33,080 bases of DNA from Nitrospirota bacterium (GTDB lineage: Bacteria; Nitrospirota; Leptospirillia; Leptospirillales; Leptospirillaceae). The notes under the pieces are model-generated. The model ran no database searches. It was not told the origin of the DNA and worked only from the letters and a program-made list of their open reading frames with translations. Shown here one piece after another: positions 9,787 through 33,072 of the stretch (the stretch's first letter is position 1; each line of letters opens with the position of its first letter). The stretch covers positions 1-33,080 of the forward strand of contig JAJYYA010000032.1 of the NCBI GenBank assembly GCA_021801345.1. Direction: 5' to 3'. A program made the translations under genes and the position numbers.

Positions 9787-9794
9787 GAGGTCCC

Positions 9795-11541: not shown

Positions 11542-11575
11542 CGATCACTGAGGAGACGGAAGGAGTCATCGCATC

Positions 11576-12958: not shown

Positions 12959-13632
12959 TGGGCGCTCTTTCCGACTACTACGTTCCCATCGCCGCCTGGG
13001 TCAAGGACCGGCTTCTGGCAGGAACGCTGGCCTCTCCGATCGAGGTCAAAGCCGAGATCACCTCCCGGATCGAGAAGGCGCGGCGGGCAACCCAGGAAGA
13101 CGGAATCGAGGAGAAGCTCTTCGAGGCCGGTCTCTTCCCCGTCGTCGTCTGGATCGACGAAAGTCTCATGTGTTCCGACTGGCCTGGAGCGAACGAATGG
13201 AGATCGATGCTCCTTCAGAAGGCTCATTTCAATATCGTCAACGGGGGGGTTGAATTTTTCCGGAGGCTGAACGCGCTGGGTCCCGAGCCGACCGACCGGG
13301 AGGTCCTGGCCGTCTATTATATGGCTCTCCATCTCGGCTTTCAGGGGCAATACGGGATGAAGGGCGGGGACAATTCTTCCATACAGGTTCGTCAGCGTCT
13401 TCAGAATCTCCTTGAACCGGCGCGCCTCTCGGAGGGGGAGTCCCTTTTTCCCGGCGTTCTTCCGGCTTCCATGGCGCTTTCCGATGCAGGATCATACGTC
13501 CGGAACCGAAACCGCCGGCTTAGGACGATTCTCCTTTGGGGTACGCCTCCGGGAATCCTTCTGATTCTCTTTTTGGTCTTTGATCGGATCATCCATCAGA
13601 TGGTTCAAAACGTACTCATTCATCTTTATTGA
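12955..13632 (+). CDS. tssL: T6SS inner-membrane protein TssL (DotU-like)
   Basis: This 225-residue protein matches the DotU/IcmH-type TssL, an inner-membrane component with its main domain in the cytoplasm, which recruits TssK. Residues about 1-180 form the helical cytoplasmic domain, with the conserved FPVVVWIDESLMCSDWPGAN stretch, then NVYEFFRRLNAL-like and EVLAVYYMALHLGFQGQYG segments. One membrane anchor lies near residues 188-208 (ILLWGTPPGILLILFLVF) with only about 15 residues after it. There is no fused OmpA/peptidoglycan-binding domain, so cell-wall anchoring, if any, comes from another protein. The ATG overlaps the tssK stop, and tssM starts 19 bases after the TGA. Confidence 0.95.
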   Translation: MMGALSDYYVPIAAWVKDRLLAGTLASPIEVKAEITSRIEKARRATQEDGIEEKLFEAGLFPVVVWIDESLMCSDWPGANEWRSMLLQKAHFNIVNGGVEFFRRLNALGPEPTDREVLAVYYMALHLGFQGQYGMKGGDNSSIQVRQRLQNLLEPARLSEGESLFPGVLPASMALSDAGSYVRNRNRRLRTILLWGTPPGILLILFLVFDRIIHQMVQNVLIHLY

Positions 13633-13651
13633 TTCCGGAGGACTGGGCTCC

Positions 13652-16600: not shown

Positions 16601-17521
16601 ACGATTCCGGCGTTCATGGACAAGACCATGGCGCCCTTTGTCCGGAGAACCCCCTCCGGATACTCGCTCGTGGTTCGCGACAGGAGGTCTGTGGCCCTCA
16701 GGCCTTCGTTCATTCTCTTTATCAACGATGCCATCAACTCCAAGCGGTCTCTCGATTTGACCCAGAAGCGAAACGAAATCGTGAAAAAGAAGCGGCACCT
16801 CGACTTGGTGAACCTTCGCCAGTCTCTCGGGAAGCAAGAGCAGAGCGACCAAAAAAAGATCCTTTCCATGGCCAAGACCAAGTTTCCCGTGGTGATAAAG
16901 GCCCTCCCGACCGACGTGAATCCCGAGTCGCTCGCACGTCCCTATCTTACGCGGCTCACGCTGGCATGCGCGGAGAAAACGCATCTTCTGAACAATCTTA
17001 ACCTGCCGGTCAGAAGGTCCTGGGAATGGTCCTCGCTCACCTGCGGAAAGACCTCCCTTGAAATTCGTCTCGGCAACCTCATCCTGACCCGGGACTACAC
17101 CGGCGGCAACGGATTCATCCAGTTTCTCCAGCAGTTCTACCAGGGGAGCCTGACGCTGACGCCTGCCGACTTTCCTCTCAAGAAGAAGGCACTCGAGAAT
17201 CTTCGGGTCACCTACCTGACCATCCACTACCAGTTCAAAGGGATCCACTCCCTTCTGATCAGCTACCAGGACTACCTTCAGGCGAAGCAGTCTTTGGACA
17301 AGGTCAAGGAGAAGATCGCGCGGATCGATCAGGAGCTGGCCATTCAGGACACCAACGGGCTCGATGACCAGAAGGCGGCATTGCAAACTTTGCCGTTTGC
17401 CATGGAGCAGGTTCCGACGAACATTGCCCTGTGTCTGCCCGGAGAGAGCTCCGGGGCTTCCCCCGAAAGCGGGGGAGGAGTCACGCCCGAACCAAACACA
17501 ACCGAAGGGAGTGGAACATGA
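13652..17521 (+). CDS. tssM: T6SS inner-membrane channel protein TssM (IcmF)
   Basis: This 1289-residue protein is the IcmF-type TssM that spans the inner membrane and periplasm to meet TssJ. I chose ATG 13652, preceded by GGAGGA at 13637-13642, since the longer open frame overlaps tssL. Two membrane helices lie at residues about 6-52 (LFSLILAIALFALVWLGGI and IQVSIPVAFVVVVLFF). The cytoplasmic NTPase-like domain has an intact Walker A, GSSGSGKTT, near 113-121, and LLDTSGRYVS near 160. A third membrane helix lies near 450-475 (IFLMGWYGASLAVGTYLVL). The rest is the large periplasmic helical region, then the C-terminal TssJ-binding beta domain. Near residue 1220 (DYLQAKQSLDKVKEKIARID) there is a coiled segment. 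The length is normal for the family. The last residues are Ser/Gly/Thr-rich and the stop overlaps tssA. Confidence 0.96.
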   Translation: MLKKILKPLFSLILAIALFALVWLGGIWAHWPIQVSIPVAFVVVVLFFSARRIVRFVQRKVAQAKLRRSAMTDRKSGRLLAIQSLWKTAKRNVQGEGGLLSNPLSTLPFYLVLGSSGSGKTTVLLNANIPIRFRTVAREEIPPPTDTIELMLEDKAILLDTSGRYVSLDPAEDASAEWSMILGLLHRTRLREPFNGVVVTLSVEELWTLDPVKLSQLSQNVRQRIDSLIRTLHVSFPVYIMITKLDLLGGFRPYLNSIPISQTGEMMGVLSSPSESWEETLSRGIQEVTERVKSLMFRRAEAPQTDPEALVFPLEIAALEPLLEPFFKGLFEPSPYLHLPKFRGFFFSSGIFGTPKFSQILGHDFAKGRVGEVEIIDRSGTALPAKTSSKAGSLPSLPGSAIGSGGLVKGAGKGFSLLSGAFLKDFFTRRLPEDRDLAVPTGLIARWRQMSTNIFLMGWYGASLAVGTYLVLSYVNAAETIKVMVSRQPASISVKGDLHQNMESMERYRSLIDWMGQRDASLSSRLLAFSLETGRLEEAMKHRFDREFETAILPQLNLTLRTKVRSLLDDDPDHRLADYVDILVRRINLIKDRVSGTSFAALKTRPQPGSQDIVDLDPSISPQEAMHFSEIYLAYISWAPVDPVRQNLDSLQSLLLEVEQTLPDFHWLADWVNARDDVDRVTLATFWKGSVKDAGDHVVLPAYTNNGMKRIEGFLAEVRKASPETFPIGHSTKKFLSWYRFRKEVAWFDYIRGFSHGEDTLGDLLQWKSVFQSLPGSKSPYLLLAKRLDSEFPKTKDDSRRPWRVLLREYLQIAKYRGPSSNFISRIRSYAAAFNESGQAGIHGGAGVGQRQMKSLITAGQAYALYSSSLSAAVAEGIQGRGHDLKLAGEYYAYSRAGSKKTPVLIATSGALDTLRQNLLTQNDPEESILWSLISGPFQTALDMIDREAACAIQDKWLDKVVSPAQATLSKRDLDHFLLGQGGTIPAFMDKTMAPFVRRTPSGYSLVVRDRRSVALRPSFILFINDAINSKRSLDLTQKRNEIVKKKRHLDLVNLRQSLGKQEQSDQKKILSMAKTKFPVVIKALPTDVNPESLARPYLTRLTLACAEKTHLLNNLNLPVRRSWEWSSLTCGKTSLEIRLGNLILTRDYTGGNGFIQFLQQFYQGSLTLTPADFPLKKKALENLRVTYLTIHYQFKGIHSLLISYQDYLQAKQSLDKVKEKIARIDQELAIQDTNGLDDQKAALQTLPFAMEQVPTNIALCLPGESSGASPESGGGVTPEPNTTEGSGT

Positions 17522-19086
17522 CAGGAGCCGAACTAGGACGTTCTCCGATACGACCGGACGCTCCGGCCGGAGACGACATACGCGACCAGGACATCTTCCT
17601 GGATCTCCAGGCGGAGATGAACCGCTCTCAGTCCATTTCCTCGGGAGCCTCGGGGGTGACCGACTGGGCCAATGTCCAAAAGATGGCCACCTCGATTCTC
17701 GAAGGAAAGAGCAAGGATCTGCTTGTGGCGGCCTATCTCTCTGTGGCGATGGCCCGAAAAAACGGACCGCCGGGGGTCATGGAGGGGATTTCCCTTCTAG
17801 GTGCGATGGTGGCCGAGCATTGGGACGGGCTTTTCCCCCCCCTCGGCCGCATTCGTGCCCGGAGAAACGCCTTTACCTGGTGGATGACCCAGATGCAGGA
17901 GATCCTGCCCTCGCTCTCCTCTCCCGAACTTTCGCCTGAGGCGATGGAGGCGGGAGTGAAGGCGATCCGCGAGCTCAACTCGACACTGGGAGACAAGGAT
18001 CCGGAAGGTCCTTCGCTGTCGACCCTGTATCCCCTTATTCAGGGGCTTCCGGTCGCTCTTCCTTCCGCCCCGGCCAAGCCCGCCTCCCCCGATTCTTCCT
18101 CTACCGCTTCCCCGTCCCCGGCATCTTCGGTTTCGTCGGGCACCACAACGGAATCCTCTTCCGGCAACAGCTTTTCCATTTCCGAAGAGGGAGATCCGGT
18201 CCTTGCCCTGGAGCAGATTTCTCCGGCCCTTTTGTCTCTCGCCGAGCGCCTCCAGGACGCGGACCCGGAAGATGGCCGCGCCCTTTCCCTTTCCCGGATG
18301 ATTCTCTGGGAAGGAATCCGGGAAATGCCCTATAGCGAGGGCGGGACGACCCGAATTCCGGCGCCTCCTCCCCATATTCTTTCTGCCCTGGAAGCCCAGA
18401 GCAACTCCGGCTCCGAGGAGGATTTTCTCCGTTTTCTCCTTGCCCGTCAGGCGGACTCGCCCTTCTGGTTCGATCTCTCTTTTCAGGCCGGTCGCATTCT
18501 CGAAGGCCGGGGCCCCAATGGGGCCGGCGGGGCGCAGGCCCTTCGTGGCGCTCTTCGGGCCCTCATCGCACGCCTTCCCGGAATCGAAAGCCTCTCCTTT
18601 TCTGGGGGGGAAGTGCCCTTCCTCTCCGAAGAGGGCCGTGCCTGGGTCGCTCAGGGGGGGGGCTCTCAGGAGGCCGAAGGGGAGGACGGAGGAGCGAAGA
18701 AGTCGACCGGAGCCCTGTCGAAGGTGCGCGCCGCCCTGTCGGACGGAAGGCTCTTCGAGGCCTGCGACCTCTTCGAGGAAATCCGAAGAAAGGAGCCGTC
18801 TCCCCGGGGCCGCTTTCTCCTGAACCTCGAGCTTCTCTCGGCGGTCGAACAGATGGGACGGGAGTTTCCGGTCCTTTCCCTGGCGAACGTCATTTTGGAG
18901 GAGATCGACCGGTTCCGCCTCGATCTCTGGGAGCCGGCTCTGGCCGCCAAGGCTCTTCCGGTGCTGTGCGGGATATTCCAGTCGATCGGGGACGAGACGC
19001 TTCGACGCCGGGCCGAGGAGCTTTCCGTTCGCCTGGCCTCCCTCGACATGACTGGGGCCGTTCGGGCGTTCCAGAACGCCCGGTGA
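17518..19086 (+). CDS. tssA: T6SS TssA protein, VasJ/ImpA type
   Basis: This 522-residue protein is a TssA, which primes and caps tube-sheath assembly in the cytoplasm. ATG 17518 overlaps the tssM stop (ATGA). The N-terminal ImpA_N domain (about 10-165) is clear: an acidic PAGDDIRDQDIFLDLQAEM, then WANVQKMATSILEGKSKDL and AEHWDGLFPPLGRIRARRNA, matching the conserved WD..FP....R...R segment. A Ser/Pro/Thr-rich linker follows (about 185-225). The C-terminal half is helical, with LARQADSPFWFDLSFQAGRI and a closing LWEPALAAKALPVLCGIF, typical of the VasJ-like branch. The FQ-rich C-terminal hub seen in other TssA classes is not evident. Confidence 0.9.
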   Translation: MTGAELGRSPIRPDAPAGDDIRDQDIFLDLQAEMNRSQSISSGASGVTDWANVQKMATSILEGKSKDLLVAAYLSVAMARKNGPPGVMEGISLLGAMVAEHWDGLFPPLGRIRARRNAFTWWMTQMQEILPSLSSPELSPEAMEAGVKAIRELNSTLGDKDPEGPSLSTLYPLIQGLPVALPSAPAKPASPDSSSTASPSPASSVSSGTTTESSSGNSFSISEEGDPVLALEQISPALLSLAERLQDADPEDGRALSLSRMILWEGIREMPYSEGGTTRIPAPPPHILSALEAQSNSGSEEDFLRFLLARQADSPFWFDLSFQAGRILEGRGPNGAGGAQALRGALRALIARLPGIESLSFSGGEVPFLSEEGRAWVAQGGGSQEAEGEDGGAKKSTGALSKVRAALSDGRLFEACDLFEEIRRKEPSPRGRFLLNLELLSAVEQMGREFPVLSLANVILEEIDRFRLDLWEPALAAKALPVLCGIFQSIGDETLRRRAEELSVRLASLDMTGAVRAFQNAR

Positions 19087-19100
19087 CAAAGGGTCCGTCC

Positions 19101-19181
19101 ATGATCTTTGAGGAGGACGCCTTGTACGCGTCTTCCATCGGGAACACTGCCTGGCGGGCAAGAGGAGCCTCCCGATGGTAA
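19101..19181 (+). CDS. Possible 26-residue leader-like small ORF
   Basis: A short frame starts at ATG 19101, 14 bases after the tssA stop, and ends with TAA at 19179-19181, overlapping ATG 19175 of the next gene. The peptide begins MIFEEDALYASSIG and has no recognisable domain. No good Shine-Dalgarno sequence precedes it (only GGGTCCGTCC). The overlap would suit translational coupling to the downstream gene, but an 81-base frame can occur by chance, so the call is weak. Confidence 0.2.
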   Translation: MIFEEDALYASSIGNTAWRARGASRW

Positions 19182-19531
19182 CCAAACCCCCTCTTGTGCG
19201 AGAGAGCGATCAGTCGAAGGAGGGCGACGCGGCCGCCCGCGAACTCTTTCTCGCTCTCCGGAGATCCTTCTACCAGGAGCTGGCCAGGCTTCTCCGGATG
19301 CGGACCGACATGAGTCTCAGCGACCTCATCGCCGTGCTGGAGAACACCGGGAAGTACCCGCGATCCATCCTCCAGGAGATCGCCAAGAAACTTCGGGAAG
19401 GAGAGGCCTCCTTTTCCGTGGCGATTCGGGAGTATGCGCCGCTTCGGGACTTCGTCATTCTCAATCTGTCGGACAAGCGTGCCTGTCCATTAGAGGACAC
19501 GCTCGCATTTCTCGTGGACTTCCCCGAATGA
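19175..19531 (+). CDS. Small protein with GspF/PilC-like helical domain
   Basis: This 118-residue protein follows tssA and appears to end the T6SS operon. It has no signal peptide or membrane helix and looks wholly helical. From residue about 27 on (LRRSFYQELARLLRMRTDMS, then LSDLIAVLENTG, ILQEIAKKLREGEASFSVAI, and LEDTLAFLVDFPE) its pattern resembles one cytoplasmic domain of GspF/PilC, where rQLa.ll.aG, l..i...l.eG.sls.Al and leeaL..la.f.e recur at similar spacing. The residue 'GE' commonly seen before the last helix is replaced by DKRACP. I infer a lone, soluble T2SSF-like domain; it could also be an unrelated helical T6SS accessory. It has an AGAGGAG site before ATG 19175. Confidence 0.5.
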   Translation: MVTKPPLVRESDQSKEGDAAARELFLALRRSFYQELARLLRMRTDMSLSDLIAVLENTGKYPRSILQEIAKKLREGEASFSVAIREYAPLRDFVILNLSDKRACPLEDTLAFLVDFPE

Positions 19532-19822
19532 ATGCCCCCTCGTAAACAGGGAAGGGGAGGGAGGATCGATCTCTGACCTTGGGTCGCAAGGTGCGGCAAG
19601 TGTCATGGGGGCCGATTCGCGGTTTTTCATTGCACACAGACCCTGACGCATGCGGGAAGATTCGCCGAAAGGCCTGTCTGTCTCGTTCGAATACACTTAT
19701 TGTCCTGGGTTCTGGGGCCATTCCTGGCCGCGATCTCCGGGAAAGAGAGACACGCTGTTGATTTTCGCATCAATTTTATCGGGTCTATTGGGCATCCTCC
19801 CTCCGTGCGCGGAGGAAAAACC
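19532..19822 (+). other. Intergenic region between T6SS operon and TPS genes
   Basis: This 291-base stretch separates the last T6SS-operon gene from tpsB. I see no convincing coding sequence; the open frame running through its second half joins tpsB but lacks a start that is better than ATG 19823. No clear rho-independent terminator is visible. A short inverted repeat, TTGAT at 19758-19762 and ATCAA at 19769-19773, lies about 50 bases before tpsB and could be an operator half-pair, but it is too short to be sure. A tpsB promoter may be here, but no good -35/-10 pair stands out. Confidence 0.5.
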
Positions 19823-21958
19823 ATGAAGACGCGATTTCTACTGACGACAGGTTTTTCTCTGACACTCCTGGTTCTGTGCCTGTCCGCTCCGACGGCTGTC
19901 CGGGCGGGGGGATGCGTCTCGACGGGCTCGCTGGGGGATGTTCTGATGAACTGCCCGCCTCCTGCCGTCAAAGCCCCGAAGCCCGCTGCGAAAAAGGCGC
20001 CCTCCGACCATTTCAGAAAAAACTGGATTCTCCATATCCGCGTTCCGCAGGGAGACTGGCATTCCGCCGTCCGTTCGGGCGTGGCCGGCTGGGTGGCTCA
20101 AAGGCTCTTTCCTCATCCGACGGCGGAGGAGCAGGCGCTCCTGAACAGGGAGATCCAGAATCTGACCCGGATGGGATTTCCTGTCGAGGCGAAAAAACAG
20201 TCGGATCTGATCGCCAGGGTCAAGGTGACCGCCGAAACATTGAACCGCATTGCCGCCCGTCTTAAAAAGGCCGTTGAGGCAAAACATCTCGCCTACCATG
20301 TCTCCCGGGTGATGGTCACGGGGGGAACGGGAAAGGAAAATCGGTTTGTCGCTGCTCAAATTCCGGTTCCGAAGTCCGGGATCGTCGCGTCGGACCAGAT
20401 GTCCCAAAAGCTCTACGACATCTCCCAGGTCCCGGGATTCTCCCGGGCGGACGGAATGATGGTCCCGGCGATCGCCACCCGGAACCTGACCTTTTCCCTG
20501 CCGCATATCCTGACCGTCCACAGTGACAAAAAAGATTGGGCGCGGGATATCCGAAGGCAGATGGTCCTTCTCGTCGCCGATCTTCTGATCGACACGAAGA
20601 ACCCGCTGGGGAAAAAGATTGCCGAGACGCTTGCCCGGAGGCTGTCGCGGGTCCCCTGGCCGAATCTTGTGATCCGAAAGGAGAAGAAGGACTCCTACCA
20701 CGTCGAAATCTCGCCGCTCCTGCTGAACACACTCAAGAACGTTCTCCTCCAGGCTGCGGCCTTGGGCAGGGTTCCGGAGACGGTTCCCCTGCTGGATCGC
20801 GCGGGCCAGTTGTCGACCGGTAACCTTTTTGCCCCCCTGCCCGCCGCATCGGAGTACGACGACTTTCTTGTCCGCATCACGCCGGTTCCGACTTTTTCAG
20901 GATCGCAGATCGAGATCGACAATTATGGATACGCCCCGACCGGCGCGCTCGTCTTGAATGCCATCGGAAATGTCAACAATGCCCTGGTCGCGGGGGGGCT
21001 TTTCACAGTCACCGCCTCGACGACCTTCGGAGGCATGAATTCGGGGATGGTGAGCGCCTCCCTTCCGATCGGGCTTTATCTCCGGACCGGGGTGGACTTC
21101 AGCGCGATGACCTACACCCTCGGGATGGGCATTTCTCCTTGGGGCCACGGAACGGATGTCGCCGCTCTCACAGCCTTGGGGGTGAGCGGGAGCAACGACT
21201 CCGGGGACCTGTGGATCGACCAGAACCTTGTCCACACCGAGGACAAAACGCTTGTCCTCAAGGAGACGCTCTTTCTCAAGCAGTTCAAGGACAACTACTC
21301 TCCGACGGTCCAGAACGACCGGAACATCGTGGGGGGGGCCTTGGACCTGTCGGGCTCGCGGTCCATCGGGAGGCTCACCGCCTCGTTCGACCTCTCCGGG
21401 ACCGAATACAGTCTCTCCCAGGGAAGTGCCTCGAGTCCCCTGAATCCCTACTATTCCGATACGCCGGGCCTGCAGAGCTATCTCTCCGGCAACGGACAGA
21501 TCGGCTTTGCCTTCACTCCGAAATATTCCCTGGTTCTGGGGACGATAGACCAGCAATATATCGGGGGAGGGACCCTCGACCCGATGCTTCAGGCCACCCT
21601 TGGAGGGGTCTCGAACGTGATGGCGCTCCCCACCGCCGCCCTCTTCGGAAACAATCTCTACGCCGGGACGCTGACCTTCACCCGTACGGACGACATCGAT
21701 GCCGGGGGCTTCTCCACTTCAGGCTTCTTCGACATAGGCGAGGTCTCGGGGGTTAGCACCAACTATCTCGCCATGGGGCCCGGAGTCGAGGAGGCCTTCA
21801 ACGCCCCCCACTTTTTTGCCAAGATCGACGTGGCGGCTCCGGTGGGGGCCCTTCCGATTGAGGGTTTGGGAAATACGATCACGGCGCTCGCCGGAGGGAA
21901 CATCGCCCAGGGGGGGATCCCGATCCAGCTGTGGCTGTCGGTCGGGGTGAGGGATTAG
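19823..21958 (+). CDS. TpsB-like outer-membrane transporter (ShlB/FhaC type)
   Basis: This 711-residue protein is probably the outer-membrane partner of the TPS pair, exporting the TpsA product of the next gene. ATG 19823 follows GGAGG at 19811-19815 and opens a signal peptide (MKTRFLLTTGFSLTLLVLCL, cleavage after about residue 28). An unusual Lys/Pro-rich and helical region follows (about 35-180). A POTRA_2/ShlB-like part may start near 195 (KLYDISQVPGFSRADGMMVP), similar to the LndlPG...l.PG signature. From about 363 (IEIDNYGYAPTGALVLNAI) the sequence reads as a ShlB-type barrel: alternating strands, Gly/Ser turns, and a C-terminal aromatic-poor last strand. It is much longer than the usual 550-600 residues and divergent, so family membership rests partly on its place beside tpsA. 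Confidence 0.75.
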   Translation: MKTRFLLTTGFSLTLLVLCLSAPTAVRAGGCVSTGSLGDVLMNCPPPAVKAPKPAAKKAPSDHFRKNWILHIRVPQGDWHSAVRSGVAGWVAQRLFPHPTAEEQALLNREIQNLTRMGFPVEAKKQSDLIARVKVTAETLNRIAARLKKAVEAKHLAYHVSRVMVTGGTGKENRFVAAQIPVPKSGIVASDQMSQKLYDISQVPGFSRADGMMVPAIATRNLTFSLPHILTVHSDKKDWARDIRRQMVLLVADLLIDTKNPLGKKIAETLARRLSRVPWPNLVIRKEKKDSYHVEISPLLLNTLKNVLLQAAALGRVPETVPLLDRAGQLSTGNLFAPLPAASEYDDFLVRITPVPTFSGSQIEIDNYGYAPTGALVLNAIGNVNNALVAGGLFTVTASTTFGGMNSGMVSASLPIGLYLRTGVDFSAMTYTLGMGISPWGHGTDVAALTALGVSGSNDSGDLWIDQNLVHTEDKTLVLKETLFLKQFKDNYSPTVQNDRNIVGGALDLSGSRSIGRLTASFDLSGTEYSLSQGSASSPLNPYYSDTPGLQSYLSGNGQIGFAFTPKYSLVLGTIDQQYIGGGTLDPMLQATLGGVSNVMALPTAALFGNNLYAGTLTFTRTDDIDAGGFSTSGFFDIGEVSGVSTNYLAMGPGVEEAFNAPHFFAKIDVAAPVGALPIEGLGNTITALAGGNIAQGGIPIQLWLSVGVRD

Positions 21959-22208: not shown

Positions 22209-22389
22209 AGCTGGCGTGGCACGGTAAGGAATACGGATCCACTAATGGAGAGTCATTGGTGGAAAGAAACTCTTGACTCCAGTCAATGGAGCTCTCGTCC
22301 GGGACCGGATTCGAACGGAACGCTTTTTCCAATATTCGGGACTCTCCGCAAGGGGATTTCCCCCACAAGTCACCACAGGAGTCTTTCCC

Positions 22390-25300
22390 ATGAAAAGACA
22401 ATCTGCCATTTTCCGCAAGCCCCCCACCCTCATCCGAAAGGTCCTGTCCGGGATTCTTTCGGTGGCGATCGTGGTCGGGCCCTTTCCGATGATGGGGGGA
22501 AAGAGTGCCTCCGCCCTTCCCCGCGGCGGGTCGGTGACCAGGGGCGGCGCGACTCTTTCCTACAGCACCGCCAGGCTCCTGATCAGACAGTCGACCTCCC
22601 GGGCAAGCTTTTCCTGGGGAAGCTACAACGTCAAGAGCGGGCAGAGCGTCGTCTACCGGACGCCGGGTTCGTCGTCGGTCTCCATGAACTTCATCGGCGG
22701 GACTACCCCCGCAATGATCATGGGATCGATCAAGTCCAACGGGATTCTCGAGTTCATGGACTCAAACGGGCTGATCTTCGGACGTGGGAGCGTCGTCTCG
22801 GCGGCCGGCGTCATGGCCTTCGGATCGAAAACTCCTTGGGGGACTCCCACCGGGGCCGTGAATAATGCCGGCACGATCACGGCAAGTTCCGGCCAGACTG
22901 TGGCTCTCGTCGGTACGCAGGTCTCCAATTCCGGGACGATCATCGCTCCCGGAGGGACGGTCGTCCTGGGCGCGGGGGCGACCGTGACTCCGATTACGTC
23001 GACTCGGACCTCCTCCTTTTCGGTCGCGACGACGGGCGGGGGAACGGTCACGAACTCCGGAGTCATCTCGGCGGAGACGGAAGGAGGGCAAACCGGCAAT
23101 ATCGTGCTCAAGAGCGGCATGGAGTCCGGGACGACGACTCTCACCGGGACCTCCGTGCTCGACGCCTCAGCTCCCAATGGCGGAAACGGGGGGGCAATCG
23201 AAACCTCCGGAAGCCGGGTGAACGTGGCGACAGGGGCCCTGGTCACGACCGAGGCTCCTTACGGCACCACCGGCACCTGGCTCATGGATCCCGTCTCCTT
23301 CTATATCGGGATGAACATGACGGGAACGGCCAGCAATACGGCCGGGAACCACTTGACCTATGAAGACATTTCCGGAACGACCCTTGCCTCAGCTCTCGGG
23401 ACAAGCAATGTTGTGATCGACTCGACACAGGGGGTTAATGGCACTCTCGGGAATATCTATGTCAACGACGCGATCATATGGAACAGTGCCAACAAACTGA
23501 CCCTGAATGCCGTCAACAATATTGAGGTCAATAAGGCCATTACAAACTCCGGCACCGGGGGGATCACCCTCTATGCCGACAACATGAGCCTGGTGGGAAC
23601 CACAACGAACACAACGGGGGGGGGTGTCCCGTCCGGGAATGGGGTGGTCGCGGTCAATACGAACGGGTCGCTTTCGACCAAGGGAGCTCTTCACATCTAT
23701 ACCAACCCGACGAACTACTGTACAAGCGGGGCCGAGACCGCCAATCCGGGCACGGCGGGAGGAAGCTACTCTAACCTCGGCACCGGAGGGACACTTCAGG
23801 CCTTCGAACTGGTGTCGACTTCCGGCGACCTCACATGGATTGACGGAAACCAGAACTCGATAACACTTGGGAACAACTACGCCTTAAACGCCAATCTCTC
23901 GCCTACCAGCTGGACCCCCTTGGGAAATTCGACGATCTCTTACAGCGGGATCCTTAACGGAAACGGCCATCTCGTAAGCGGCTATACGATCGGAACCTCT
24001 TCGGTAGCCGATGTCGGCTTCATCGGAGTTCTCAGTTCGAGTGGAATCGTCGAGAACCTGGGTGTTTCGGGGACGATTACTGCGAGTAATGCCTCCTATG
24101 TGGGCGGGATTGTGGGATGTAATGCCGGTCAGGTCGTCTCATCCTACAACAGTGGATCCGTCTCCGGGGGAACCGCACCCTCGGGAACGGCGGGAGCCAA
24201 CGGGACCAGTACATCAACTACCGGGGGGACTGGGGGCGCCGGCGGAAATGGGGGTGATATCGGAGGCGTCGCGGGAGCGAACTCCGGCACAGTCGAATAT
24301 TCCTACAATACGGGTTCCGTGACCGGCGCGTCCGGCGGAGGGGGAGGAGTCGGCGGGACGGGTTATGGATCCGGATCGGGGGGCGCTGGGGGAAGCGGCG
24401 GCGCCGGCGGAAATACCGGGGGCGTCGTGGGAACGAACTCCGGCACAGTCGAATATTCCTACAATACGGGTTCCGTGACCGGCGCGTCCGGTGGGGCAGG
24501 GGGATCCGGCGGTGCCGGCGGTTCGAGCGGATCGGGAGGGGCAGGAGGCTCCGGAGGGGCAGGAGGAAATAGCGGCGGGGTCGCGGGGGCAAACTCCGGC
24601 ACCGTCGCATACTCCTACGGCTATGGGAGCGTTACCGCTGGATCCCCCGGGGCGGGAGGCTCCGGCGGCACCGGATCGTCGACTGGTTCCACCGGAGCAT
24701 CCGGAGGGGCGGGTGGGACCGGTGGGGTCGTGGGGTCGAATACCGCCACGACGGTTACCTCGACCTACTATAATTCCTCGGCATTTACAGGGACTGGATA
24801 TGGAACAAGCACAAAGAACATCACGGTCGGGAGCATTTCGTCAAGCAATTTCGGAAGCCCCAGCTCCTACTCATGGACCTTTAACACCTGGTCTGGTTCG
24901 GGCTTCTCCTCTGCCTCAACCCCTTGGTATCTCGCCTCAACCGGTATGACAATGCCTGTGCTGGTCTCGGATATGTCAACCGACAGCATCGCAGCCAATA
25001 ACGCTTCCGCTGAATACTCGGGCTCGGCCTATTCGGGAACGCCGGGCGTCACCCAGAGCAATGCCCCCACCAGCGGAACGATCGGGTACTCCTATTCCAC
25101 TGCGAACCCTACCAATGCCGGAACCTACACGATAATGCCGACGATCAGCAGTGTTCCCGCCCCTCTCACTCAATCAGGGCTCGGCTCATTTTCTTTCGTC
25201 CTCGGATCTCTCACGATCGACAAGGCGAACCTGACCCTGTCGGGAACAGAGGTGTACAACGGAACGACGACAATGGCGGGGAGTGCGCTGACGGCGACAG

Positions 25301-28044
25301 GGGTGGCCGGACAGACCTTTACGGTGACCGGGACCGGAGCGGGAGACCTATCCACCGCGAACGTGCAGACAAACGCGGCACTGGCAAACGTGACCAATCT
25401 GACATTGGGAACGAGCGCGAACGGAGGGATCTCCACGAACTATAATCCGATTTCGGTGACAGGGAGCTCGGTCTCGGTCACTCCGGCGAACCTGACCCTG
25501 TCGGGAACCGAAGTGTACAACGGAACGACGACAATGGCGGGGAGTTCGCTGACGGCAACAGGGGTGGCCGGACAGACCTTTACGGTGACCGGGACCGGAG
25601 CGGGAGATTTGTCCACCGCGAACGTGCAGACAAACGCGGCACTGGCAAACGTGACCAACCTGACATTGGGGACGAGCACGAACGGAGGGATCTCCACGAA
25701 CTATAATCCGATTTCGGTGACAGGGAGCTCGGTCTCGGTCACTCCGGCACCCCTCACTCTCTCTACGAGCGTCTCTAAAGTCTATGACGGAACGACTGCC
25801 GCGAGCCTCTCGGGGAGCAATACGACTCTTGGGGGGATGGTTTCCGGCCAGACGACAGGGGCGGGACTGAACACGACGGTCACCGGGACGTTGTCCAGTA
25901 CGAACGTGGGATCGAACCTTGGGGGGACGGTCACCCTGTCCAACTCTGACCTGACCGGAAACACCACATTCACCACCGCCCTTGGGGCGGGAGACTACAC
26001 CCTTCCCACGACCTTCACTGGGGGGGCGATCACTCCGGTAACGCTTACGCTGACCACGACTGTTTCGAAGATTTATGACGGAACGCAAAGTGTGAGTCTG
26101 ACGGGAACTAATACGACCCTCGGGGGAGTTATCTCAAGCCAGACGGGGGCGGGGATTTCGAGTGCTACCGGGACGCTGTCCAGTGCGAACGTGGGAACGA
26201 ACCTCGGAGGAACGGTCACGCTGACCACGAGTAACCTGACCGGGAGTGCTTTCATTACAGCACTCGGGAATGGGGATTATATCCTCCCCACGAGCTTCAC
26301 TGGGGGGGGGATCACTCCGGCACCCCTCACTCTCTCTACGAGCGTCTCGAAAACCTATGACGGAACGACTGCCGCCAGTCTGACGGGGAGTAATACAACC
26401 CTTGGGGGGATAATTAACGGTCAAACAGGGGGACTGAACACGACGGTCACCGGGACGCTGTCCAGTGCGAACGTGGGAACGAACCTCGGAGGAACAGTCA
26501 CGCTATCAAATGGCGAGGTGTCAACGGCAGGCACCTCATTCGCCACGGCACTTTCGTATGGGGACTACACCCTCCCCACGACCTTCACCGGCGGGACCAT
26601 TACCCCGGCCACGTTTACCGTAACGGAGACTGCCACCCCGGCCTCGATGACCTACGGAAGTACGGTTCCGGCGCTTTCCGGAACGCTGTCAAGTGCTAGC
26701 CTTACCCCGGCGCAGATTGCGAGTTTCGTAACGGCCACCTGGAGCACGCCGGCTACGAGTACAAGCAATGTCGGGACCTATTCGATTAACCCCATCCTCA
26801 CATACGGAACAAACACGAACGGAACCCCCGTGATCGCGGCAGACTTCACGCTCACACCCGCGGCCGGAAATGCTTCGGCGATGACCGTGACTCCCGCTCC
26901 CTTGACGGTGACTCTCTCCTCCGTCAACAAGACATATGATGGCAGCTCCAATGCCTATGTCGTGGGGACGACAACTCTGGAGACGACGAATGGCCTGTCC
27001 CAGAGCATATCTCCGAACATCACGATTTCGGGGTTCGTCAACGGAAATTCCGCAACCTTCAACGGGACGACCGTTAGCTATGAAAGCGGTGGAAGCGCGG
27101 TCTCGAACGTGGGGAGCGGCTATTCGGTCTCAGTACCGATCGACTCAGGATCCTTCACACTCGGTAGCGGGACCTTACTCTCCAACTATTCGATTAACGG
27201 AACCCCGTTGACTGGTTCGAATGTCGCCACTGTCGCAGGCTCCGGCGCCATCAGGCAAGCGGCCTTGGAACTCTCTACTACGGCAACGAAAACATTCGAC
27301 GGGATGTCGGGGATCATCCTGACGCCGGCCACTACCACATTTTCAGGAGCCACCTCAGGACAGACCGTGGATTTGGCCGGTAATACTTCTGCCACACTTT
27401 CCTCTTCGAGCGTCGGATCGAACCTTGGAGGTTCGATCGCTCTCAATGCGGGGGATCTGACTGGGAATTCGGCCTTCCTTGCGGCTCTCAACGCAGGAGA
27501 CTATCTCCTTCCCTCGACATTTACGGGAGGGAGGGTGTTTTCCGCCTCGTCGAGCCCCATCATTCCTGCGGGACAGGTAAGCGTCTCGGAGGTGTCGATG
27601 GCGCAGAGCATTGCGAACGACGGGACAGGAAGCCAGGTTTCCTCTCTGCCTTCCTTCCCCCCTCCTCCGGTCGCGCATTTCGGGACGTCGCTTGGAGGGG
27701 GCTTGAATATGGGAGGCCTGACGGATGACTCCTCCAATATCTTCGATCTGAACACACAAAGCACTGCCGTTCAATCGAATTCCAACGATCAGACGATCTA
27801 CTCGATCGATTCGACCTATGTTCTTCCCGCCGAAAGTCAGTCTTTGAGTACCAGCTCAGAGGGGGAGAACGCTTCATCTCCAGGACAGGGGGGAGGGAAG
27901 ACTTCCGGCGAAGGCAAGTCCAGAGGGGCCGCATCCTTCAATTCGCTGACGGTGGCAGGGTCAAAGTCAGCCCCGTACTCGCTTCAGATTCCAATCTTCG
28001 ACAACTCCGTCGGATCGGTTTTTGAAAGCGAAGAAGCCCGGTAA
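22390..28044 (+). CDS. TpsA-type large repeat adhesin/exoprotein (filamentous haemagglutinin-like)
   Basis: This 1884-residue protein is the likely TPS substrate, exported across the outer membrane by the TpsB-like partner upstream. ATG 22390 follows AGGAG at 22377-22381 and opens a long signal peptide (about residues 1-41, ending near ASA-LPRGG). The TPS domain follows at about 42-300: LPRGGSVTRGGATLSYS, LLIRQSTSRASFSWGSYNV, and NGLIFGRGSVVSAAGVMAFG near 125, close to the haemagglutination-activity consensus. Residues about 578-785 are four GLUG-like units joined by Gly-rich segments. Residues 946-1119 are two nearly identical 87-residue units. Residues 1120-1406 hold three YDG-type units (VYDGTTAASL, IYDGTQSVSL, TYDGTTAASL), and further MBG/YDG-like domains continue to about 1720. 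The Ser/Gly-rich C-terminus has no toxin, LPXTG or CDI motif. An adhesive or biofilm role is inferred. Confidence 0.88.
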   Translation: MKRQSAIFRKPPTLIRKVLSGILSVAIVVGPFPMMGGKSASALPRGGSVTRGGATLSYSTARLLIRQSTSRASFSWGSYNVKSGQSVVYRTPGSSSVSMNFIGGTTPAMIMGSIKSNGILEFMDSNGLIFGRGSVVSAAGVMAFGSKTPWGTPTGAVNNAGTITASSGQTVALVGTQVSNSGTIIAPGGTVVLGAGATVTPITSTRTSSFSVATTGGGTVTNSGVISAETEGGQTGNIVLKSGMESGTTTLTGTSVLDASAPNGGNGGAIETSGSRVNVATGALVTTEAPYGTTGTWLMDPVSFYIGMNMTGTASNTAGNHLTYEDISGTTLASALGTSNVVIDSTQGVNGTLGNIYVNDAIIWNSANKLTLNAVNNIEVNKAITNSGTGGITLYADNMSLVGTTTNTTGGGVPSGNGVVAVNTNGSLSTKGALHIYTNPTNYCTSGAETANPGTAGGSYSNLGTGGTLQAFELVSTSGDLTWIDGNQNSITLGNNYALNANLSPTSWTPLGNSTISYSGILNGNGHLVSGYTIGTSSVADVGFIGVLSSSGIVENLGVSGTITASNASYVGGIVGCNAGQVVSSYNSGSVSGGTAPSGTAGANGTSTSTTGGTGGAGGNGGDIGGVAGANSGTVEYSYNTGSVTGASGGGGGVGGTGYGSGSGGAGGSGGAGGNTGGVVGTNSGTVEYSYNTGSVTGASGGAGGSGGAGGSSGSGGAGGSGGAGGNSGGVAGANSGTVAYSYGYGSVTAGSPGAGGSGGTGSSTGSTGASGGAGGTGGVVGSNTATTVTSTYYNSSAFTGTGYGTSTKNITVGSISSSNFGSPSSYSWTFNTWSGSGFSSASTPWYLASTGMTMPVLVSDMSTDSIAANNASAEYSGSAYSGTPGVTQSNAPTSGTIGYSYSTANPTNAGTYTIMPTISSVPAPLTQSGLGSFSFVLGSLTIDKANLTLSGTEVYNGTTTMAGSALTATGVAGQTFTVTGTGAGDLSTANVQTNAALANVTNLTLGTSANGGISTNYNPISVTGSSVSVTPANLTLSGTEVYNGTTTMAGSSLTATGVAGQTFTVTGTGAGDLSTANVQTNAALANVTNLTLGTSTNGGISTNYNPISVTGSSVSVTPAPLTLSTSVSKVYDGTTAASLSGSNTTLGGMVSGQTTGAGLNTTVTGTLSSTNVGSNLGGTVTLSNSDLTGNTTFTTALGAGDYTLPTTFTGGAITPVTLTLTTTVSKIYDGTQSVSLTGTNTTLGGVISSQTGAGISSATGTLSSANVGTNLGGTVTLTTSNLTGSAFITALGNGDYILPTSFTGGGITPAPLTLSTSVSKTYDGTTAASLTGSNTTLGGIINGQTGGLNTTVTGTLSSANVGTNLGGTVTLSNGEVSTAGTSFATALSYGDYTLPTTFTGGTITPATFTVTETATPASMTYGSTVPALSGTLSSASLTPAQIASFVTATWSTPATSTSNVGTYSINPILTYGTNTNGTPVIAADFTLTPAAGNASAMTVTPAPLTVTLSSVNKTYDGSSNAYVVGTTTLETTNGLSQSISPNITISGFVNGNSATFNGTTVSYESGGSAVSNVGSGYSVSVPIDSGSFTLGSGTLLSNYSINGTPLTGSNVATVAGSGAIRQAALELSTTATKTFDGMSGIILTPATTTFSGATSGQTVDLAGNTSATLSSSSVGSNLGGSIALNAGDLTGNSAFLAALNAGDYLLPSTFTGGRVFSASSSPIIPAGQVSVSEVSMAQSIANDGTGSQVSSLPSFPPPPVAHFGTSLGGGLNMGGLTDDSSNIFDLNTQSTAVQSNSNDQTIYSIDSTYVLPAESQSLSTSSEGENASSPGQGGGKTSGEGKSRGAASFNSLTVAGSKSAPYSLQIPIFDNSVGSVFESEEAR
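24121..24738 (+). repeat. Four GLUG-like, glycine-rich tandem units in tpsA
   Basis: Units begin at 24121, 24280, 24436 and 24592 with lengths 159, 156, 156 and 147 bases. Each starts with a short core such as NSGTVEYSYNTGSVTGAS and ends in a Gly-Ser-Ala run (GGAGGSGGAGG style). The second and third cores are nearly identical at the DNA level (24280-24340 and 24436-24496). The Gly-rich parts are GC-rich and vary between units, so slippage could change the length of the protein. Confidence 0.85.
25225..25746 (+). repeat. Two 261-bp tandem repeats in tpsA, about 96% identical
   Basis: The units 25225-25485 and 25486-25746 code for 87 residues each, beginning ANLTLSGTEVYNGTTTMAG. By direct comparison I find 10 base differences. 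Eight are silent; two change the protein (Ala to Ser and Ala to Thr). The unit is a diverged YDG-like domain (VYNGTT in place of VYDGTT). The identity points to a recent duplication kept under selection on the protein. Confidence 0.92.
25747..26607 (+). repeat. Three diverged YDG-type domain repeats in tpsA
   Basis: Units begin at 25747, 26038 and 26320 with lengths 291, 282 and 288 bases (97, 94 and 96 residues). They share LTLSTSVSKxYDGTTAASL starts, a central GTLSSxNVGxNLGGTVTL stretch, and end YxLPTxFTGGxITP. The first and third are closer to each other than to the second. A more distant copy occurs at about 27268-27540 (TKTFDGMSG, SSSVGSNLGGSIAL). Confidence 0.85.
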
Positions 28045-28297: not shown

Positions 28298-29872
28298 TTA
28301 CAGGCAGGCTGTTCCCTGAGAGAGAAGGGTATTGCTTGAAATGCCGGCTGGCCGGGCTCTGAGGATGTCGGCTATCTTCTGGAGCATCCGGAGATCGTGA
28401 TCTTTAAACAGCGATTCGCAATGCCAGACGAGGGCATTGAGCCCCCTGGCGGACAAGTCTTCCATTGGATCCAAAAGTGAAAGGGCTTTTCCCGCGATCT
28501 GAGAAACGTCCCCAGTTTGAATCTGGGCCGCTTTCTCGAACAACAGATGGCCGAGATGAATCAGGAGCCTGAATTCCGTTTCGCATACGTTCGCGGGCGA
28601 CGGGAGAGCGGAAAGAAGGGTCAGCCCTTGCCTGAGGAACTGTTCCGCCTCGAAGAGACTCCCCTTTGACAACACGATCTCGTTCGCCTTTTCGTACCAC
28701 CTTGCCGCCTCTCCTTTCTCTCCGGCAAGATCGAAATGAAAGGCTACGATCTCAGGAGCATTGTCTGCCTGTACCGGAAAGTGTTCCCGAAGAGAAACGG
28801 CAATTTTTCGATGAAACTCCGATAGGGTTTTGGGGTGGAGCGAGCGCAGGAGGGTTTCCCTTACGAGTGGGCGTCGAAAGGCGAGGGTCGTTTTCCATCC
28901 GATTCCGGGAGAGGGGGATCTCTGGAGAATCTCCGAGCAAATGAGCAAGTCGAGGTTTTTTTCGAATGACTCCGGAGCCATCGGGAGAAGGGTCCGGAGG
29001 AGCTCGACGGGAACCTGGTCGCCGACAGCGGAGGCGAAAAGTGCGAGATTTCGGGCGCTTCCCAGTCGAACAAGTTTGGATTGGACGGTTTCCTCTATAG
29101 AGCCCAGTGTTCGTCGGTTTTTCCCGAGGGATTCGATGTGTTCTCTGGAGACTTCCTTGAGGTAAAGCGGAACTCCCTCTCCCAGAGAGGTAATTCGGAG
29201 CATGTCCTGCTCCGTCAGTCCGCACTCGCCTGAAATGGTGTGAATCATTTCTTTCGAGTGAATTTGCGACAGAGGATTGAGGCAAAGTTTCCCGGATGTG
29301 GGGATCAATGAAATCCATTCGGGACCCTCCCCGGACCGGAATGTCAGCATGAAAAAAATTCGCTTCGAAAGGGCCGGATCGCGAAGTATTGCGGCAAGAA
29401 TCTTTCCCGTTGAGAGATCGCACCAGTGGAGATCTTCCGCCAGAATGATGAGGGGGTGGCGTTGGGCCCAGACATTGAGAATCTTGACGAGGAGTTTCCG
29501 CATCTTTTGATCGCAAGGAAACGGAGGAGTCGGGGAACCGGAGCCGTCCGAAAGACTTGAAAAGGACAGGAGCGACCGAAGGAGATCGAAGGAGTCGGAG
29601 TCGGTATCGATTTCGAGGGATTGGGCGTAGTCCGACAACCTCCGCTCGCTCAGGGTCGGGTCCGATTCGCTGAGGGATCCGAAATCAGACCGAAGCATCT
29701 CCGATAAAGGAAAGAAAGGCCAGTTGCGGGCGTGAGGCAAGCATTCGATCGTCCGAAAATCAGCCCCGAACCGGACTCCGTCAAGAATGCAGGAATGGGC
29801 GATGGCGCTTTTTCCGACTCCCGCCTCGCCCTCCACCAAAAGGACGCCCCCCCGATTATTGGTATAAAGGTC
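28298..29872 (-). pseudogene. 3' fragment of split BTAD-cyclase-ATPase regulator (ATPase and TPR part)
   Basis: This is the downstream half of the regulator broken by the IS66-type element. The frame runs from the target-site copy at 29872 to a TGA-type stop at 28298-28300, about 522 residues. Walker A lies in LLVEGEAGVGKSA, Walker B in LIILAEDLHWCDLST; these define an AAA_16-like ATPase. Next come ATPase-lid segments and a helical, TPR-like region (YEKANEIVLSKGSLFEAEQF). Its first start codon now is only a TTG at 29839, inside the ATPase core, so a stable product is unlikely unless transcription from the element and a weak start supply one. The TPR tail ends soon after residue 490, shorter than relatives that continue for several hundred residues, so the end may also be eroded. 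It reads towards tpsA. Confidence 0.88.
29865..29872. repeat. Target-site duplication, left copy (TAAAGGTC)
   Basis: This 8-bp sequence directly adjoins the left end of the IS66-type element and repeats exactly at its right end. In the regulator's reading direction it belongs to the codons for Asp-Leu-Tyr. Confidence 0.93.
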
Positions 29873-31621
29873 GTAACTATTCAGGGGGTACCCCCCTCCA
29901 GATGATCAGTTTTTGACCACTGGACACCTATTTCTTGATGTGGTAGGGTGGTGGCATGGAGACGACACCACACCCCAGTACCGTCCCGAACGGTCCAGAA
30001 GTCTCTTCGGGCCCAGCGATCTCCTCCTTCAGGATCTTCACCCGGGAGGAACTTGAAGCGATCGCGCTCACAACACCGCTTGTCCTTGTCGACCTCGCTC
30101 TGGCCCAGGCGGCCCAGATCCAGGATCTTCTGGCGCGCGTGAGCGCCCTGGAAGAGCAACTGGCAAAAAACAGCCGCAACTCAAGCAAGCCTCCCTCCAC
30201 AGATGGCTATGCCAAACCGGCCCCCAAGAGTCTTCGGACGTCTTCGGGGAAGACGCCGGGAGGACAGACGGGGCATCCCGGACATACCCTCTCTCCGGTC
30301 GAGACGCCGGACAGGATTCTCGTCCATTTGCCGGAGAGCTGCCCCTGCGGGTATTCCGGAGCGTTTGAGGAGGATCCTGACTTGCCTGTCGACACGCGAC
30401 AGGTCCTGGATCTTCCTCCCCAGACACTGATCGCGACCGAGCATCGCTGTCCCGTCCGGCGCTGTCCCAAGTGCCGGAAGAGGATCCAGGCTCCCTTTCC
30501 GGCGGAAGCGGCCGTTCCCGTCCAATACGGCCCGAACTTCAAATCGTTTTTGGCTTATACCCACTCCGTCCAGCTCCTCCCTTTCGGGCGCATCTCCCAA
30601 ATGTGCCAGGATCTTTTCGGAGCTCCGGTCAGCCCCGCCACCATCCAGAACGCCCTGATCGACATGGACAAGGCGCTCGACGGGTTTTCGGAGGTTCTCG
30701 AACAGGAGATCCTCAAAGCCCCTCTCGCCCATGCGGACGAGACCGGAATCCGGGTTGCGTCCTCTCTCTCCTGGCTCCATGTCCTCTCCACGGCCGAACT
30801 GACCTGGTACGGGGTCCATGAAAAACGGGGAGGGGCCGCCCTCTCCGACTTCGACCTCCTCCCCCGCTTCCGGGGACGCCTCATCCACGACTGCTGGTCG
30901 CCCTACTTTGCCTTCGACATTCCCCATGGACTCTGCAACGCCCATCTCTGTCGGGAACTGGTCTTCGTGGACGAGGTTCTGGAGCAAGACTGGGCCCGGC
31001 CCCTCCGCCTCTTTCTCGTGGAGGTCCTTGACGCGTCCTATGCCCATCGGGCCGCCGGGACCGTCTTCTCCCCCGAAGCGCTCGCCTCCTTGAGCGCCCG
31101 CTACGACAAACTGATCGACAACGGGTGGAAGGAAAACCCCCTGGCCCCCGAGACCCCGAAGCGCCGGGGGAGGCCCAAAAAGACCAAGGCCCAGAACCTT
31201 CTCTCCCGACTTCAAACCCACAAGGAGAGCGTCCTTGCCTTCATGTACGACCTCTCGGTGCCGTTCACGAACAACCAGGCCGAGAGGGATTTGCGCATGC
31301 TCAAGGTCAAGCAGAAGATCTCCGGATCGTTCCGCACCATGGAAGGAGCCCGGCGGTTCGCAAGGATCCGTTCCTATATCTCGACCGCCACGAAGAACGG
31401 GAAGCACCTCCTCGACGCTCTCACCCAAGCCTTCCTCGGAAATCCCTTCCTCCCCTCACGGTCTCCCTGATCCCTTCGGGCTCGGGATGACCGGACTCTC
31501 AACCTTTCCAGAAGACGTCCGGGCGAAACTACTCCACTTCGAATTCAGACTCCAGAAGATCTTTTTCCCACCAACGGGACCGCTGCGTCTTTGAACGGTC
31601 ACCCTACCCCTGAATAGATAC
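29873..31621 (+). mobile_element. IS66-type insertion sequence, 1749 bp, with 8-bp target duplication
   Basis: The ends are imperfect inverted repeats: GTAACTATTCAGGGG at 29873-29887 and its complement CCCCTGAATAGATAC at 31607-31621 (14 of 15 match; ends begin GTA, as in IS66 elements). The flanks carry an 8-bp direct repeat TAAAGGTC at 29865-29872 and 31622-31629, the usual IS66 duplication size. It has one long ORF, as in the ISBst12-like IS66 branch, without the small accessory orfs of classic IS66. A perfect 12-bp palindrome, GGGGGTACCCCC, lies at 29884-29895 in the left end only. The intact ORF and exact duplication suggest a recent insertion. Confidence 0.95.
29956..31470 (+). CDS. IS66-family (ISBst12-like) DDE transposase
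   Basis: This 504-residue transposase would cut and join the ends of the element. Residues about 45-70 form a leucine-zipper-like helix ending in LAKNSRNSSKPPSTDGY, an IS66 hallmark. A zinc-binding region follows, with cysteines in CPCGYSG and CPVRRCPKCRKR. The catalytic triad is visible as D261 (HADETGIRV), D312 (IHDCWSPYF) and E443 (NNQAERDLRM). The basic KRRGRPKKTKAQ stretch near 395 is probably a DNA-binding insert, and the C-terminus (RSYISTATKNGKHLLDAL) is typical. No frameshift or premature stop is seen, so the protein is likely functional. The start at ATG 29956 is preceded only by a weak GGTGG site. Confidence 0.95.
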   Translation: METTPHPSTVPNGPEVSSGPAISSFRIFTREELEAIALTTPLVLVDLALAQAAQIQDLLARVSALEEQLAKNSRNSSKPPSTDGYAKPAPKSLRTSSGKTPGGQTGHPGHTLSPVETPDRILVHLPESCPCGYSGAFEEDPDLPVDTRQVLDLPPQTLIATEHRCPVRRCPKCRKRIQAPFPAEAAVPVQYGPNFKSFLAYTHSVQLLPFGRISQMCQDLFGAPVSPATIQNALIDMDKALDGFSEVLEQEILKAPLAHADETGIRVASSLSWLHVLSTAELTWYGVHEKRGGAALSDFDLLPRFRGRLIHDCWSPYFAFDIPHGLCNAHLCRELVFVDEVLEQDWARPLRLFLVEVLDASYAHRAAGTVFSPEALASLSARYDKLIDNGWKENPLAPETPKRRGRPKKTKAQNLLSRLQTHKESVLAFMYDLSVPFTNNQAERDLRMLKVKQKISGSFRTMEGARRFARIRSYISTATKNGKHLLDALTQAFLGNPFLPSRSP

Positions 31622-33072
31622 TAAAGGTCATGAAAAACTTGTCTTTCCGATTCTCTGCCAATAAGAACAGGGGGTTCCGGGAAGGGAGTCTTCTCCCGAC
31701 TGACGAATATCGAAAGCAGATATCCCGTCGTCTGCCGCTTGAAAAGCGTGATGGGCTTGGTGCTTGCTTGGGGAAAGAGTCCTCGGAGAGCATGGTAGGT
31801 GTCGGAGGAGACAAGAATGGAGTCCGGAGGGGCTTGCATGCAGAGGGCTGTTGCCGACTTTGAAACGGTTCCGACCGGGTCGGTCGAATTCGAGTCGGGG
31901 CTCTTGAGGACTCTGCCCGTATGCACTCCCCCTCGCAACTCGACATTTCTGAATCCGGTCTTCCGGGCTCCTTCAAAAATCTTTCCGATCTCCAGTGCCG
32001 CCTTGACGGCAAGGATGGAGGCGCGATCTGGCTCCCCGTCGGTTCCGAACCAGGCGAGAAAGCCGTAGTCGTTGATGCGACACTCGACGCTCCCGAACTT
32101 TTGAACGGTTTTCAGAAGAGGTTCAAAGAGTTGCGAGGTGTTCGATAGGGCTTCGCTGGAATCGGCCTGGTGAAGGTCGATCACGAGGGCGGTGACCTGG
32201 AGCCACTCGAGAACGGGAATCTCGTCGGAGTCGGAAGCTAAAGAGAGGGTTGCCTTAGGGGAAACGGCCGGTCCTTTCACAATCCTTTTGATAAGGTCTT
32301 TCGTCGAGGTATCTGGTTCTGCATCCAGTTCGGACTTGAGCGACTGACTGAGCTGAACATACCGTTTCTGCGCGGCACTGACATTTCCCATCTTTCCCAG
32401 GAGAGCGATCTGGGTTCGAGTGCGTTCCTCATCGAGCGGATCCATCTTGAGAAAGTGGTCGAGGAGACGAACGGCAACTCCTAGCCGATGTTCATTTTCT
32501 AAAAGTGCGACAATCCGGTCGATGGCCCACCGGCTTCGCTCAATGAGACCTTCCTGGACGGCGGTGATCCAGTTTTGAAGCTCCTCGCATTCCGGAAAGG
32601 AAAATCCTTCAAAAACGGGGCCTCGAATCGAAAGGAAGCTCCCGGTCATCTGCTCGCGACAGGATGGGCATTCCTTGGGATCGTGCAGGATATCGCAATC
32701 CTTGGGCGGATGGAAAAACCCTGAAGAGTCAAGATTTCGGAAAAGCGTGGGATTAAGCTGCACGCTTCGTTGCGTTGTGAGAATGACAGGCTCGGATTCG
32801 TCGGTCGAGAGTTTTCCTTTGAGAAGATGGAGGGATTGGCGAAGGCTGTTGTCGCCTTTTTTATCCAGCACTTCCGGCCAGAGAAGGTCGGAGAGATAGT
32901 TTCGGGTATGAGAGCGGTTCGACTCTACAAATAAATAGGATATGAGGGCCATAGAGGCTGTTGCAAAACTATAAGTTACTGTGGAGTATGAATTATTAAA
33001 AAGCTTACATAAGTTATTGCCAAATATAGCTACATAATATCCACAAGTATTTACTTGCATTATTTTCAACAA
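31621..33072 (-). pseudogene. 5' fragment of split BTAD-cyclase-ATPase regulator (DNA-binding part)
   Basis: This 483-codon fragment is the N-terminal half of the regulator, stopped by a TAG created at the insertion joint. The start is TTG 33072 or, more likely, ATG 33060; the frame stays open to the window end. Residues about 1-95 form an OmpR-like winged helix (MALISYLFVESNRSHTRNYL, LLWPEV, NSLRQSLHLLKGKL). A cysteine cluster (DCDILHDPKECPSC) and BTAD helices follow (about 100-250). Residues 290-455 are class III cyclase-like: the metal-binding Asp positions remain (VIDLHQAD and INDYGFLAWFG), but the usual N...R pair of the NLAARL motif is lost (TVSKSATALC), so catalysis is doubtful. The fragment ends VLIGRESERQVFHDL just before the ATPase. 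A truncated DNA-binding product remains possible. Confidence 0.88.
31622..31629. repeat. Target-site duplication, right copy (TAAAGGTC)
   Basis: This is the second exact copy of the 8-bp duplication, at the right end of the element. Its first two bases together with the last base of the element form, on the minus strand, the TAG codon that now ends the 5' regulator fragment. Confidence 0.93.

What the first reader, a model, noticed from the sequence alone, without database searches (positions are those of the whole stretch)
28298..33072. IS66-type element splits a 1005-residue regulator; ancestor restored exactly
Removing 29873-31621 and one TAAAGGTC copy joins the two minus-strand frames without shift, giving ...VFHDL-YTNNRGGVLL-VEGEAGVGKS... 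through the junction to the Walker A. The intact ancestor would be about 1005 residues. The insertion lies just before the ATPase, so DNA binding and ATPase parts are now separate.
Basis: seen in the sequence. Interest (0 to 1): 0.65.

Follow-up and report, generated by a model that had tools for sequence, protein, structure and literature searches.

The report
Regulator gene broken by insertion sequences

Summary
A 1749-bp IS66-family element (single transposase ORF, ISBst12-like) lies at 29873-31621 with near-perfect ends and an exact 8-bp target duplication, TAAAGGTC. Joining the flanks restores one open frame. Eleven homologous genes in the same bacterial family cross this point with no gap.

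The "exact 1005-residue ancestor" is wrong. The last 127 bases of the window (32954-33080) are the end of a second, multi-copy element, probably IS1182-like; identical or 97% identical sequence lies at two other contig ends. It removes the first 30-40 residues of the winged-helix domain. At the other end homology stops near 28361. About 300 residues (TPR region) present in every homologue are absent. The ancestor was therefore about 1270-1300 residues, and only about 960 remain, in two pieces.

The IS66 insertion is also not "just before" the ATPase. It lies inside the AAA_16 domain, 18 residues before the Walker A lysine.

The gene was a SARP/BTAD + nucleotide-cyclase-like + STAND-ATPase + TPR regulator of PimR (SARP-LAL) architecture. 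Homologues often lie divergent to an adhesin-type locus. Best reading: an ordinary, fairly recent pseudogene.

The parts
29873..31621 (+). IS66-family insertion sequence, single-ORF (ISBst12-like) type, 1749 bp
   Evidence: Terminal repeats 14/15 and exact 8-bp flanking duplication; sibling copy on C56 with 8-bp duplication GGATGGAC
29956..31470 (+). IS66 transposase, 504 aa, intact open frame
   Evidence: NCBIfam NF033517 IS66 transposase 302 bits, above cut-off; Pfam DDE_Tnp_IS66, zf-IS66 and DUF6444
29865..29872 (.). Target-site duplication TAAAGGTC, left copy
31622..31629 (.). Target-site duplication TAAAGGTC, right copy; with the IS end it makes the stop codon TAG at 31623-31621 (minus strand)
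31624..32952 (-). N-proximal regulator remnant: part of winged helix, BTAD, nucleotide-cyclase-like domain, and first ~20 positions of AAA_16 (443 residues that align to homologues)
   Evidence: Pfam BTAD and partial Trans_reg_C; alignment; AfsR, EmbR and nucleotide cyclase matches of the family profile
28298..29864 (-). C-proximal regulator remnant: Walker A onward in AAA_16, then helical/TPR-type region; homology stops near 28361, frame runs on about 20 codons to a stop at 28298
   Evidence: Pfam AAA_16 from profile position 22
32954..33080 (.). End of a second, multi-copy mobile element (probably IS1182-like; end GAGGCTGTTGCAAAA), cutting the 5' part of the regulator; contig stops inside it
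   Evidence: 100% identical at the end of C23 and 97% at the end of C10, with different flanks; a near-identical end borders an IS1182-type transposase fragment on C25
28045..28360 (.). Stretch between the adhesin stop codon and the end of regulator homology; holds no trace of the missing ~300 C-terminal residues
   Evidence: tblastn of homologue C-termini at E<=10 finds nothing between 28045 and 28360

Best explanation
A pseudogene of a large STAND-type transcriptional regulator (SARP/BTAD DNA-binding part, nucleotide-cyclase-like domain, AAA_16 ATPase, TPR tail; PimR/SARP-LAL-like order), inactivated by at least three separate lesions: an IS66-family insertion inside the ATPase domain, a second element end (probably IS1182-like) replacing the first 30-40 residues of the winged helix, and loss of about 300 C-terminal residues. 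Shown: the IS66 insertion and its footprint, the multi-copy nature of the 5' element end, the absence of both termini relative to homologues, and continuity in homologues. Inferred: that no functional protein is made; that the intact gene was an ATP-dependent transcription activator, possibly of a divergently placed adhesin locus; that the 5' element belongs to the IS1182 family.
For: IS66 ends, exact 8-bp duplication and restored frame; sibling copy with its own 8-bp duplication; transposase family hits. Published: IS66 elements generally give 8-bp duplications (PMC3916326); single-ORF ISBst12-group ISDge4 has ends GTGACTACTCAGCA/GTAACTGCTCAGCA and an 8-bp repeat (PMC12898284). Homologues with open frames of about 1180-1370 codons in the same family, gapless at the junction in 11 of 11. 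5' element. Missing C-terminus. Domains.
Against: The two remnants contain no other stop or frameshift over about 960 codons, so the damage is recent and residual function of a fragment cannot be excluded. The C-terminal loss rests on homologues at only about 30-36% identity; a natively short variant is possible, though none was seen. The contig is from a draft assembly whose reads were not available.
Confidence: 0.92

Rival explanations
1. The gene is split but functional: the upstream fragment (DNA binding + cyclase-like) and the downstream fragment (ATPase + helical part) are made separately and work together.
For: Both fragments remain free of stops; Walker A is intact in the downstream fragment.
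Against: The cut is inside the AAA_16 domain, 18 residues before the Walker A lysine. The only start in the downstream frame before Walker A is a TTG within the first strand of the fold. No promoter-like site was found. The winged helix lacks its first 30-40 residues and the TPR tail is gone.
Confidence: 0.04
2. Only the IS66 insertion is real damage; the 5' and 3' differences are assembly artefacts or native variation, so the ancestor was close to the reader's 1005 residues.
For: The window is at a contig end; no sister strain was available for comparison.
Against: The 5' 127 bases are multi-copy with different flanks at three contig ends, and homologues carry a normal winged-helix N-terminus there. 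All 11 homologues have about 290-360 more C-terminal residues.
Confidence: 0.04

Closest known systems
IS66 family, ISBst12 group (e.g. ISDge4 of Deinococcus geothermalis, PMC12898284)
   Same: Single transposase ORF, ends of the form GTAACT..CTCAG/TTCAG, 8-bp target duplication, insertion into a coding gene
   Different: Element is 1749 bp with a 504-aa transposase; no name given here; the best-covering plasmid-borne relatives are about 45% identical
PimR-type SARP-LAL regulators of Streptomyces (PMC3367932)
   Same: Order of parts: SARP/BTAD DNA-binding part, guanylate-cyclase-like region, AAA ATPase of large ATP-binding regulators
   Different: This copy is broken in three places; its relatives lie in another bacterial group, often beside adhesin-like genes rather than antibiotic clusters; cyclase activity and DNA targets untested
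AfsR (SARP-STAND-TPR regulator)
   Same: SARP part followed by a STAND ATPase and TPRs; AfsR structures match the family profile over part of the BTAD region
   Different: A nucleotide-cyclase-like domain sits between the SARP part and the ATPase here

Membership tests
IS66 insertion sequence family (ISBst12 group) | IS66 DDE transposase | tested here: met
   NF033517 302 bits against a cut-off of 180; PF03050 E=2.7e-46
IS66 insertion sequence family (ISBst12 group) | Terminal inverted repeats beginning GTAA/GTAT and an 8-bp target duplication | tested here: met
   14/15 repeats and exact TAAAGGTC; second copy with GGATGGAC
IS66 insertion sequence family (ISBst12 group) | Single ORF, no tnpA/tnpB | tested here: met
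   One 504-aa ORF fills 29956-31470 of the 1749-bp element; the other frames in it overlap this ORF or run antisense to it; not searched specifically with TnpA/TnpB profiles
SARP-LAL (PimR-type) regulators | N-terminal winged helix plus BTAD | tested here: met
   Remnant: BTAD E=7.2e-8 and partial Trans_reg_C; homologue L044 has both; the winged helix itself is truncated in this copy
SARP-LAL (PimR-type) regulators | Guanylate-cyclase-like region before the ATPase | tested here: met
   Family profile positions 290-457 match solved nucleotide cyclases, E=3e-8; weak in the single sequence, below the Pfam cut-off
SARP-LAL (PimR-type) regulators | AAA ATPase with Walker A | tested here: met
   AAA_16 and GEAGVGKS motif; split by the insertion
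SARP-LAL (PimR-type) regulators | Sequence-specific activation of a target promoter | not testable with these tools
   Needs binding and expression assays
IS1182 family (second element, 32954-33080) | IS1182 transposase in the same element | tested here: inconclusive
   Contig ends inside the element; assignment rests on a near-identical end (1 mismatch) beside a partial IS1182-type transposase on C25, which scores below the curated cut-off

The most novel reading that the evidence does not exclude
The split pieces still act as a two-part regulator, with the DNA-binding/cyclase piece uncoupled from ATPase control, changing expression of a nearby adhesin locus.
Probability: 0.03. Interest if true: 0.4.

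Novelty: new member of a known kind. Interest (0 to 1): 0.12.

Why it matters
Mostly as a correction: a clean insertion footprint does not prove that the rest of the gene is intact. It also records a family of PimR-like (SARP + cyclase-like + ATPase + TPR) regulators outside Streptomyces, several placed divergently from adhesin-type loci. That gives a testable regulator-target pairing in intact relatives.

Tried and rejected
Looked for an uninterrupted copy in the same genome and 40 relatives: no orthologue, only paralogues at no more than about 39% identity. The single scan of named genomes with the ATPase half returned one remote hit, Chitinophaga. Looked for the missing C-terminus in the window in all frames and elsewhere in the genome: the hits are other family members, several at contig ends, none recognisable as the lost piece. 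Looked for the body of the second element in the genus: only the three known ends. Looked for a sister locus at the 3' junction: G008 matches the adhesin end only, and its contig stops there. Promoter scan: nothing found. Short inverted repeats at 28196/28260 were seen but not explained.

Full report
What was checked. The window is the whole of contig C26 (33,080 bases) of a 2.6-Mb draft genome in 73 contigs. It runs 29873-31621 and is 1749 bp long. Its ends GTAACTATTCAGGGG and GTATCTATTCAGGGG match at 14 of 15 positions, and it is flanked by an exact direct repeat TAAAGGTC. An exact 8-bp repeat at boundaries fixed by the terminal repeats has a chance of about 1 in 65,000. A second, diverged copy on contig C56 (85% identical over its first 330 bases) has the same kind of ends and a different perfect 8-bp repeat, GGATGGAC, read from its two flanks. 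The transposase is an IS66 transposase by curated model. Eight-base duplications are usual for IS66 elements (PMC3916326). Single-ORF ISBst12-group elements with very similar ends are described (ISDge4, PMC12898284).

The junction. Joining the flanks in a script gives one stop-free frame through ...ERQVFHDL-Y-TNNRGGVLLVEGEAGVGKS.... The search of 41 genomes gave full-length homologues in the same genus and family at 36% identity or less. Eleven of them align over the junction region with no gap, for example LISREREMATLEEHWKNNQGGVLVVEGDAGIGKS. The cut is inside the AAA_16 domain: the downstream fragment matches the Pfam model only from position 22, the intact homologue L041 from position 1, and the Walker A lysine is 18 residues after the junction residue.

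The 5' end. Bases 32954-33080 are AT-rich, 100% identical to the end of contig C23 and 97% identical to the end of contig C10, and change to unrelated flanks at GAGGCTGTTGCAAAA. This is the end of a repeated mobile element at which the assembler stopped. A near-identical end on C25 (one mismatch) borders a partial transposase that best matches the IS1182 model, below its curated cut-off, so the IS1182 label is probable, not proven. Homology to regulators begins at MALISYLF (32952). Homologues with complete 5' ends have the usual beta-strand start of the winged helix before this point (for example MYRLRLFGPPDLLSEYQSLRAHKKHLALLSLLA).

The 3' end. Homology ends near residue 945 of the joined frame, about 28361. 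All eleven homologues continue for 290-360 residues (TPR region). tblastn with those C-termini at a very loose limit finds nothing between 28045 and 28360. The remaining space before the adhesin gene (stop at 28044) could encode at most about 105 residues, so most of the tail is physically missing. The cause was not found. A deletion is the simplest account, but an assembly error cannot be excluded without reads.

What the gene was. Pfam gives BTAD, partial Trans_reg_C and AAA_16. Intact homologues add TPRs. A profile of the family matches EmbR over positions 17-278, AfsR within the BTAD region, and nucleotide cyclases over 290-457. This is the order of parts described for PimR of Streptomyces (PMC3367932). 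In six family loci the regulator is divergent to genes related to window 19700-21958 and/or 22273-28044 (a filamentous-haemagglutinin-type adhesin): L040, L042, L044, L045, L046 and the same genome's C19 = L059. In L040 and L059 other ORFs lie in between. A role in controlling such a locus is a reasonable inference, untested. In the window itself the regulator faces the adhesin tail to tail, and whatever lay upstream is beyond the contig end.

Verdict. An ordinary IS-disrupted regulator with additional damage at both ends. The remnants carry no further stops, so the events are probably recent. A functional split protein is unlikely because the cut is inside the ATPase fold, the DNA-binding domain lacks its start, and the tail is gone.

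Host. Membership in the Leptospirillum group is my guess from the size of the complete relative G015 (2,559,538 bases), recalled and not tested.

Noticed in passing
window 120-19531: Type VI secretion gene cluster: TssG (start not checked), TssH/ClpV, VgrG, pentapeptide-repeat proteins, TssK, TssM and TssA by profile; TssJ, TssL and PAAR-like labels are from gene order only. Order conserved in G008:C55 and, in part, G005:C74.
   Followed up: partly
window 3448-5784: VgrG stops at 4941 and a separate 261-aa gene follows that looks like a VgrG tail; the same split is seen in G008:C55 and G005:C74, so it is conserved rather than a local frameshift.
   Followed up: partly
window 22273-28044: 1923-aa filamentous-haemagglutinin-type protein with YDG domains and a 264-bp repeat at 96% identity (25224-25748).
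   Followed up: no
window 19700-21958: 752-aa gene just before the adhesin, with no Pfam or NCBIfam match, but conserved beside the same adhesin type in several relatives; a candidate transporter partner.
   Followed up: no
L059 722-1208 and 3701-4185; L058 5657-6550: The 5' part of another regulator of this family is duplicated within contig C19 (96.5% over 487 bp), and C20 carries a copy 92% identical over 897 bp, so the family is being duplicated and broken in this genome.
   Followed up: partly
L049, L073, L075 (contigs C37, C35, C49): Three more regulators of this family run off contig ends, as expected for assembly breaks in paralogous or IS-interrupted genes.
   Followed up: no
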